DNA of 37,474 bases from positions 1 through 37,474 of the forward strand of contig JAIFNG010000126.1 in the NCBI GenBank assembly GCA_020047815.1, written 5' to 3'. This stretch comes from Anaerolinea sp. (GTDB taxonomy: Bacteria > Chloroflexota > Anaerolineae > Anaerolineales > Villigracilaceae). Numbering within the stretch: position 1 is the stretch's first letter; each line of letters opens with the position of its first letter. Below, one piece after another: positions 24,926 through 25,921 of the stretch. Both the position numbers and the translations under genes were made by a program. The notes beneath the pieces were generated by a model. It searched no databases and had not been told where the DNA came from. It was given only the letters and a program-made list of their open reading frames with translations.

Positions 24926-25255
24926 TTATTCTTTTATCTCAAAATTAAAAGGCAGATCATGGCACTCCCCGCAGCCCACCTGTGGTTCGTTTACAATGCG
25001 TTTTGTTTTTTCACAAAATGCACTTACCTGCACCCGCCGTTGAAAGAAAGAGAAGACGGAACGATTGATGACAGCTGTCAGGTGCATGTGCTGGCATGAG
25101 TTCGCGCGGGCTATATCCGGCACAGGACAGGTTGTGCATAGATCGCGCGACCAGATCTGTCCATTAATTTTTAGCAGCCGGCATTCTTCCACATTGCGAC
25201 CACGATAATAGTCGCCAAAGAAGTGCGGGCATTCACGCCCTGCGGGTGTTTTCAT
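24926..25255 (-). CDS. Eight-cysteine protein of unknown function
   Basis: No family is recognised. The start is set at the ATG at 25255 because it lies seven bases after the efp stop. The longer frame from 25420 would run inside efp. The 109-residue product has eight Cys: 9, 25, 40, 43, 54, 81, 95 and 98, including two CxxC pairs (LCTTCP and VGCGECH), plus His at 11, 56, 58 and 99. This pattern fits two zinc sites or one or two iron-sulfur clusters. There is no signal peptide or membrane helix. It is expected to share the efp transcript. Confidence 0.75.
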   Translation of the reverse strand: MKTPAGRECPHFFGDYYRGRNVEECRLLKINGQIWSRDLCTTCPVPDIARANSCQHMHLTAVINRSVFSFFQRRVQVSAFCEKTKRIVNEPQVGCGECHDLPFNFEIKE

Positions 25256-25262
25256 GGTTTGG

Positions 25263-25820
25263 TTATACGCGGGTAAGATACTCGCCTGTGCGGGTGTCCA
25301 CGCGGATGGTGTCGCCGACAACCACAAAATTTGGGCATTGTACCTGGATCCCGGTTTCGGTGGTAACTTTTTTGGTGACACCTGTGGCTGTATCCCCGCG
25401 GATTGCCATGTCGGCTTCAACGACTTTTAAATCCACCGAGGTGGGCATTTCCACATCAATGGGCTCGCCTTTATAGAAGGTAAGTTTTACTTCCATGCCT
25501 TCCTTCAAGTACTTGGAGCTATCTCCGAGGGATTCCTTTTTGATCCCTGGTTGTTCAAAAGTCACATTATCCATAAAGTAATACAGGTCGCCATCATTAT
25601 ACAGGTACGAAACATTGGCAAAATCCAGGCTTACATCCTGTACAGACAACCCGGAGTTGAAGGTGCGTTCAATGGTGGCGCCGGTTAATAGGTTTCGGGC
25701 TTTAATTTTAATGTTGGCGTTGCCGCGCCCTGTTTTATTGTGGCTGTAGTCCAGCACTTTCAACAGGTTTCCGTCCAATTCGAATGTAACACCTTTGCGT
25801 AGTTCATTTACATCAATCAT
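25263..25820 (-). CDS. efp: Translation elongation factor P
   Basis: EF-P relieves ribosome stalling at polyproline by entering the E site. At 185 residues the three beta-barrel domains are complete: the KOW-like N-terminal domain, a middle domain (FNSGLSVQDVSLDF to YYFMDNVTFEQ) and the C-terminal OB domain ending in VGDTIRVDTRTGEYL. The tip of domain I reads NKTGRGNAN, so the residue normally modified is Arg32 rather than Lys. Arg32 is seen in the EarP-rhamnosylated clade and also, from memory, in Thermus. The Thermus-like context GRG suggests the latter type. Confidence 0.95.
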   Translation of the reverse strand: MIDVNELRKGVTFELDGNLLKVLDYSHNKTGRGNANIKIKARNLLTGATIERTFNSGLSVQDVSLDFANVSYLYNDGDLYYFMDNVTFEQPGIKKESLGDSSKYLKEGMEVKLTFYKGEPIDVEMPTSVDLKVVEADMAIRGDTATGVTKKVTTETGIQVQCPNFVVVGDTIRVDTRTGEYLTRV

Positions 25821-25921
25821 GCTTGCACTTTCCTTGTTTGTTTGATTTTTTTAGCGGGCGGATTATACCAATGAGTTGCAGGTCATGGCTAGGTTGCGGG
25901 CATGTTCTAAACATGACCGGT

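What the first reader, a model, noticed from the sequence alone, without database searches (positions are those of the whole stretch)
24926..25255. Eight-cysteine protein directly coupled to efp
A 109-residue protein of no recognised family has eight Cys (9, 25, 40, 43, 54, 81, 95, 98) with two CxxC pairs and begins seven bases after efp. It could be a new metal-binding partner of translation or of EF-P, or a thiol/iron-sulfur protein. The HAD-DinB fusion, whose DinB fold often binds metal, follows 25 bases later.
Basis: partly seen in the sequence, partly recalled or inferred. Interest (0 to 1): 0.55.

Follow-up and report, generated by a model that had tools for sequence, protein, structure and literature searches.

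The report
Class-wide eight-cysteine protein beside efp
A small protein of no known family with eight conserved cysteines, probably holding two metal ions or clusters, is widespread in one class of Chloroflexota and often sits right behind the gene for a ribosome helper (EF-P), but it persists where that neighbour is gone.

Summary
It is a real, constrained gene of no family in Pfam or NCBIfam. Homologues occur in 87 of 101 relatives and 182 of 249 genomes of the class (probably Anaerolineae); 263 genomes of other classes gave one weak hit, which is junk. Cys 9, 25, 40 and 43 are invariant in 142 of 142 distinct proteins; Cys 54, 81, 95 and 98 are kept in 131, 141, 141 and 139. One natural variant has lost exactly the last four, so two separate four-Cys sites are the best reading. 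The efp link is old but not obligatory: efp lies directly upstream in 84 of 136 assessable loci (21 families) and not in 52 (29 families and three more loci), where the neighbours share no theme. I read it as a class-restricted, cytosolic, two-site metal protein in an ancestral efp operon; a dedicated EF-P partner is possible but not favoured. AlphaFold models were too poor to test the sites, and the metal was not testable.

The parts
24926..25255 (-). eight-Cys protein gene (P0001, 109 aa plus stop), new family
25229..25231 (-). codon of Cys9 (site I; invariant 142/142)
   Evidence: position computed from the start codon at 25255
25181..25183 (-). codon of Cys25 (site I; invariant 142/142)
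25127..25138 (-). codons of Cys40-x-x-Cys43 (site I, CxxCPVP; both Cys invariant 142/142)
25094..25096 (-). codon of Cys54 (site II, 131/142)
25013..25015 (-). codon of Cys81 (site II, 141/142)
24962..24973 (-). codons of Cys95-x-x-Cys98 (site II, GCGxCH; 141 and 139 of 142)
25263..25820 (-). efp, elongation factor P; the gene directly upstream
   Evidence: PF08207
23704..24900 (-). HAD-DinB fusion; the gene directly downstream
25862..25891 (-). promoter-like site (10 of 12 matches) upstream of efp, candidate promoter for efp - eight-Cys - HAD-DinB
   Evidence: a consensus match only

Best explanation
A class-restricted, cytosolic two-site metal protein. Site I (C9, C25, C40, C43) in the N-terminal half is the indispensable centre; it sits among the invariant or nearly invariant R18, G19, R26, L27, W35 and P46, which likely form its working surface. 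Site II (C54, C81, C95, C98), in a predicted strand-rich C-terminal half, is a second, more dispensable and probably structural site. The gene is expressed from an old operon with efp and a HAD(-DinB) hydrolase, but the protein works as a small housekeeping adaptor or scaffold, not as an obligate EF-P subunit. Shown: the gene, its constraint, its distribution, the Cys pattern, the linkage and its exceptions. Inferred: metal binding, the division into sites (one clear co-loss), that the efp linkage is ancestral, and the role. Zinc or Fe-S is open: CxxCP in site I leans to Fe-S, GCGxC after a predicted hairpin leans to zinc (both motif associations recalled).
For: Cys 9/25/40/43 invariant in 142 of 142 distinct proteins; Cys 54/81/95/98 in 131, 141, 141, 139; the variant L122 has lost exactly the last four, L141 has lost C54 and C98. 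Loss of C54 goes with loss of another C-terminal Cys: 2 of 11 against 1 of 131, Fisher p 0.016, without correction for kinship. No hydrophobic N-terminal stretch in the sequence (by eye). Present in 182 of 249 class genomes, 128 of 161 of high quality; 87 of 101 relatives. efp directly upstream in 84 of 136 assessable loci, 21 families (families). Where unlinked, the chosen neighbours share no theme.
Against: No metal was measured. AlphaFold gave mean pLDDT 53 and 61, so the sites could not be tested, and no fold matched. The co-loss rests on one sequence plus a partial case. Of the 11 proteins without C54, nine keep C81, C95 and C98, so C54 may not be a necessary ligand. The role is inference only. 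Eight Cys could also work as redox thiols.
Confidence: 0.55

Rival explanations
1. Dedicated metalloprotein partner of EF-P or of translation: it binds EF-P or the ribosome and is kept behind efp so that both are made together.
For: efp directly upstream, same strand, in 84 of 136 assessable loci, over 21 families and several deep branches of the gene tree; gaps mostly under 150 nt, a few overlaps. In 8 of the 14 relatives without the gene, efp was not found either; three of these eight (G012, G070, G089) are 92-97% complete, so a joint loss is possible beside missing contigs.
Against: 29 families, and the loci L040, L044 and L074, have it away from efp. Pfam hits of unlinked upstream genes are EamA transporters, lysA, a DnaQ/DinG-like helicase, gyrase B, SSB, UPF0182 and others; RNase PH (1 of 32) is the nearest to RNA work. 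Six genomes have efp and no detectable gene, with the same Arg at the EF-P tip. L040 and L122 carry it directly behind the helicase that lies upstream of efp in L131, L132 and L141 (and further upstream in L133 and L135); most simply, efp left and the gene stayed.
Confidence: 0.17
2. Thiol or Fe-S redox sensor: site I holds an oxygen- or redox-labile cluster that changes the protein's binding to a partner.
For: CxxCP in site I; helices predicted in the N-terminal half (low confidence); WhiB among the stray Pfam hits (1 of 44 members, E 0.19).
Against: No DNA-binding domain recognised; WhiB Cys spacing (recalled) is not met; no WhiB structure came up with the profile at E 10. GCGxCH and the strand-rich C-terminal half look more like zinc (recalled).
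Confidence: 0.2
3. Functional partner of the HAD(-DinB) hydrolase rather than of EF-P.
For: HAD follows in 68 of 81 efp-linked loci with enough sequence. In L089, L112 and L113, families without direct efp linkage, a HAD without fused DinB still follows; in L189 the two genes overlap by 4 nt.
Against: 41 of 46 unlinked loci with enough downstream sequence have no such HAD (phmmer with the window protein, which may miss distant ones); in L155 a HAD frame follows efp without the gene.
Confidence: 0.08

Closest known systems
WhiB-type [4Fe-4S] proteins (PF02467)
   Same: small, Cys-rich, a CxxCPV stretch (WhiB motif recalled)
   Different: Cys spacing C-x15-C-x14-C-x2-C, four more Cys; profile match in 1 of 44 members only, E 0.19; no WhiB in the PDB search
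Zinc ribbons and treble clefs in general
   Same: two CxxC pairs, predicted strands between Cys 54 and Cys 95
   Different: five Cys precede the strands; no sequence or fold match
c-type cytochromes (CxxCH)
   Same: GCGxCH at 94-99; weak profile match to a cytochrome c555 construct, E 0.022
   Different: residue 99 is His in only 113 of 142; no export signal seen
Lineage-specific novel families such as FESNov (PMC10849945; passages seen)
   Same: unknown family that marks a high-level lineage, with purifying selection
   Different: whether this family is in that catalogue was not checked; the main text names no Chloroflexota

Membership tests
WhiB (PF02467) | C-x(n)-C-x2-C-x5-C cluster ligands (recalled) | tested here: not met
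   invariant spacing is C-x15-C-x14-C-x2-C in the window protein; the next Cys is 11 residues further and not invariant
WhiB (PF02467) | profile match | tested here: not met
   1 of 44 members, E 0.19
c-type cytochrome | conserved CxxCH and export | tested here: not met
   His in 113 of 142; no signal-like stretch in the sequence (by eye)
Any Pfam or NCBIfam family | match to a curated profile | tested here: not met
   P0001: none at E 10; 44 members: best E 0.018 in Pfam and 0.026 in NCBIfam, one member each
Zinc ribbon | two Cys pairs on two knuckles around one Zn | tested here: inconclusive
   model confidence too low
EF-P-associated factor | constant linkage or co-occurrence with efp | tested here: not met
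   84 linked of 136 assessable loci; efp without a detectable gene in 6 genomes
EF-P-associated factor | physical or genetic interaction with EF-P | not testable with these tools
   needs the bench

The most novel reading that the evidence does not exclude
A lineage-specific metalloprotein that serves EF-P or the ribosome in this class: the ancestor had it in the efp operon, and later separations broke only the operon, not the function. EF-P here carries an Arg at the tip, so the protein might take part in an unknown modification or rescue step.
Probability: 0.13. Interest if true: 0.75.

Novelty: new variant of a known kind. Interest (0 to 1): 0.45.

Why it matters
A protein kept in 128 of 161 high-quality genomes of one bacterial class, under strong selection, in no public family that I searched, with four Cys invariant in 142 of 142, points to a basic lineage-specific function and a possible new metal site. 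It is a new family; as small multi-Cys metal proteins are a known kind, I rate it a new variant of that kind until metal and fold are known.

Tried and rejected
Families: Pfam, NCBIfam and PHROGs gave only stray hits (PHROGs best E 0.01, one member). PDB by profile: a cytochrome construct at E 0.022 with a 21-position stretch around GCGxCH, and a virus capsid at E 1.1; both rejected. Structure: two AlphaFold jobs with 10 sequences each, pLDDT 53 (window protein) and 61 (L039); Foldseek best E 2.0, VIA-align none at Z 2; nothing concluded except tentative secondary structure.

Fusion with HAD-DinB: L017 reads as one 524-residue frame. The DNA (L190) shows a palindromic repeat between the genes, read through in frame, and HAD keeps its own ATG; rejected as evidence of a natural fusion. 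Weak hit outside the class (G436, E 2e-5): a low-complexity Arg/Thr/Ser frame with a stop, not a homologue. Viral contigs (1 of 8 scans), plasmids, phages: no relatives. EF-P modification: EF-P of the six genomes without the gene has the same Arg tip. Literature: four searches listed nothing that looks to be on this protein, judged by titles and starts of abstracts; one paper on unknown families was found and seen in passages only.

Limits: gene calls in the loci are mechanical; the tree has 113 columns for 93 rows; same-genus rows are many, so family counts are safer than locus counts. One search set 6 of 142 proteins aside for under 900 nt of upstream sequence; some unlinked calls rest on little more than that. 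Searches used 34 chosen loci of the 58 without efp, giving 32 upstream and 25 downstream genes, some perhaps wrong frames. For dN/dS, 3 of 8 pairs gave no dS. Other phyla were not searched systematically: only the pattern scan, whose 9 loci are all Chloroflexota by title.

Full report
What is there. On the minus strand of the window efp (25820-25263), the eight-Cys gene (25255-24926) and a HAD-DinB gene (24900-23704) follow each other with gaps of 7 and 25 nt. A promoter-like site with 10 of 12 matches lies upstream of efp (25891-25862); none lies between efp and the eight-Cys gene, two of 9 of 12 lie inside efp, and a weak terminator-like stem lies inside the eight-Cys gene (25240-25227, five pairs). 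Such sites are consensus matches only. The three genes are probably one unit.

Is it a gene? Yes. Homologues are found in 87 of 101 relatives (58 of 66 of high quality) and in 182 of 249 genomes drawn from the class (128 of 161 of high quality), one match per genome in the listed rows except G228 and G296 with two. In the phylum draw of 301 genomes 35 rang; 34 belong to the class, and the one outside it (of 263, taking the unlisted rows as outside the class from the order of the listing) is junk. dN/dS to five relatives is 0.034-0.105 with dS above 1; for three more dS was not defined.

Absence. Of the 14 relatives without the gene, none rang with the profile either. In eight of them, all five of the same genus included, efp was not found either; missing contigs are a likely cause, but G012, G070 and G089 are 92-97% complete, so a joint loss is not excluded. 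Six have efp without a detectable gene; three of these are all the f12 genomes seen, a likely true loss. In L155 a HAD frame follows efp without it; in L157 an FtsH-like frame follows (FtsH recognised by eye).

The cysteines. In 142 distinct proteins (154 loci) C9, C25, C40, C43, R18 and W35 are invariant; C54 is Cys in 131, C81 in 141, C95 in 141, C98 in 139. L122 keeps the first four and has lost all of the last four; L141 has lost C54 and C98; L137 lacks C98 in the alignment but has a Cys one place on. Nine of the 11 proteins without C54 keep the other three C-terminal Cys. The partition, four N-terminal and four C-terminal, is the main structural inference and rests on one clear case.

Structure. 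The second model has helices at 12-18 and 22-31 and strands at 59-66, 75-82 and 87-89, with block means of pLDDT 75-81 in 61-90. No solved structure matched. Coordinates are not returned, so Cys distances could not be measured.

Linkage to efp. In the first 74 loci (mostly of the own order, with duplicates) 70 have efp upstream on the same strand; L031 has only 53 nt upstream, and L040, L044 and L074 have no efp in the stretch held. Over 142 distinct proteins 84 are linked, 52 are not, 6 cannot be judged. By family the linked ones are 14 of the own order's 15 seen (f1-f11, f13-f15; no copy was found in f12) and 7 others (f55, f59, f60, f62, f67, f68, f69); 29 families are unlinked, as are L044 (f7), L074 (f10) and L040 (family not known) (my tally). 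On the gene tree the label needs 13 changes, at least 6 forced by well-supported branches, so linkage was old and lost several times, or gained several times. I favour the first: a DnaQ/DinG-like helicase precedes efp and the gene directly in L131, L132 and L141, and further upstream in L133 and L135, while in L040 and L122 a relative of it directly precedes the gene; and in L189 the order is efp, a cation-efflux-like gene (by eye), a UPF0182 gene (from L112 of the same genome), the eight-Cys gene, HAD, all on one strand. efp was found in 25 of 26 unlinked genomes tested; in one of them, G109, it is this near neighbour.

What unlinked neighbours say. Upstream genes of 32 loci: EamA transporters 4, lysA-like 2, the helicase 2, and singles such as UPF0182, gyrase B, SSB and RNase PH. 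Downstream genes of 25 loci: HAD 3, phosphorylase 2, singles otherwise. There is no translation theme.

Conclusion. The protein is a new, class-restricted family under strong constraint, most likely with two metal sites. The efp neighbour is a real and widespread link, probably old, but not a constant one, so the claim of an EF-P partner becomes a minor reading. The metal and the role need the bench.

Noticed in passing
L190 1605-1680 (G036): A palindromic repeat (GCGACATTTATGTCGC and a near copy) sits between the eight-Cys gene and HAD-DinB and is read through in frame, making an apparent 524-residue fusion.
   Followed up: partly
window 25263-25820: EF-P has TGRGN at the tip loop, Arg where E. 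coli has the modified Lys (mapping recalled); the six efp genes without the eight-Cys gene have Arg there too. What modifies it in this class was not looked into.
   Followed up: partly
G106, G110, G196 (L164/L186, L161/L188, L178/L187): Three of 26 class genomes have two efp-like matches.
   Followed up: no
L089, L112, L113: The HAD partner occurs without fused DinB; in L113 a separate DinB gene follows, so the window's HAD-DinB may be a fusion of neighbours.
   Followed up: partly
L032 (DYDH01000020.1): Titled Herpetosiphon sp., but its gene, efp and HAD show the same identities to the window as L004 of the window's own genus; probably a misnamed MAG.
   Followed up: no
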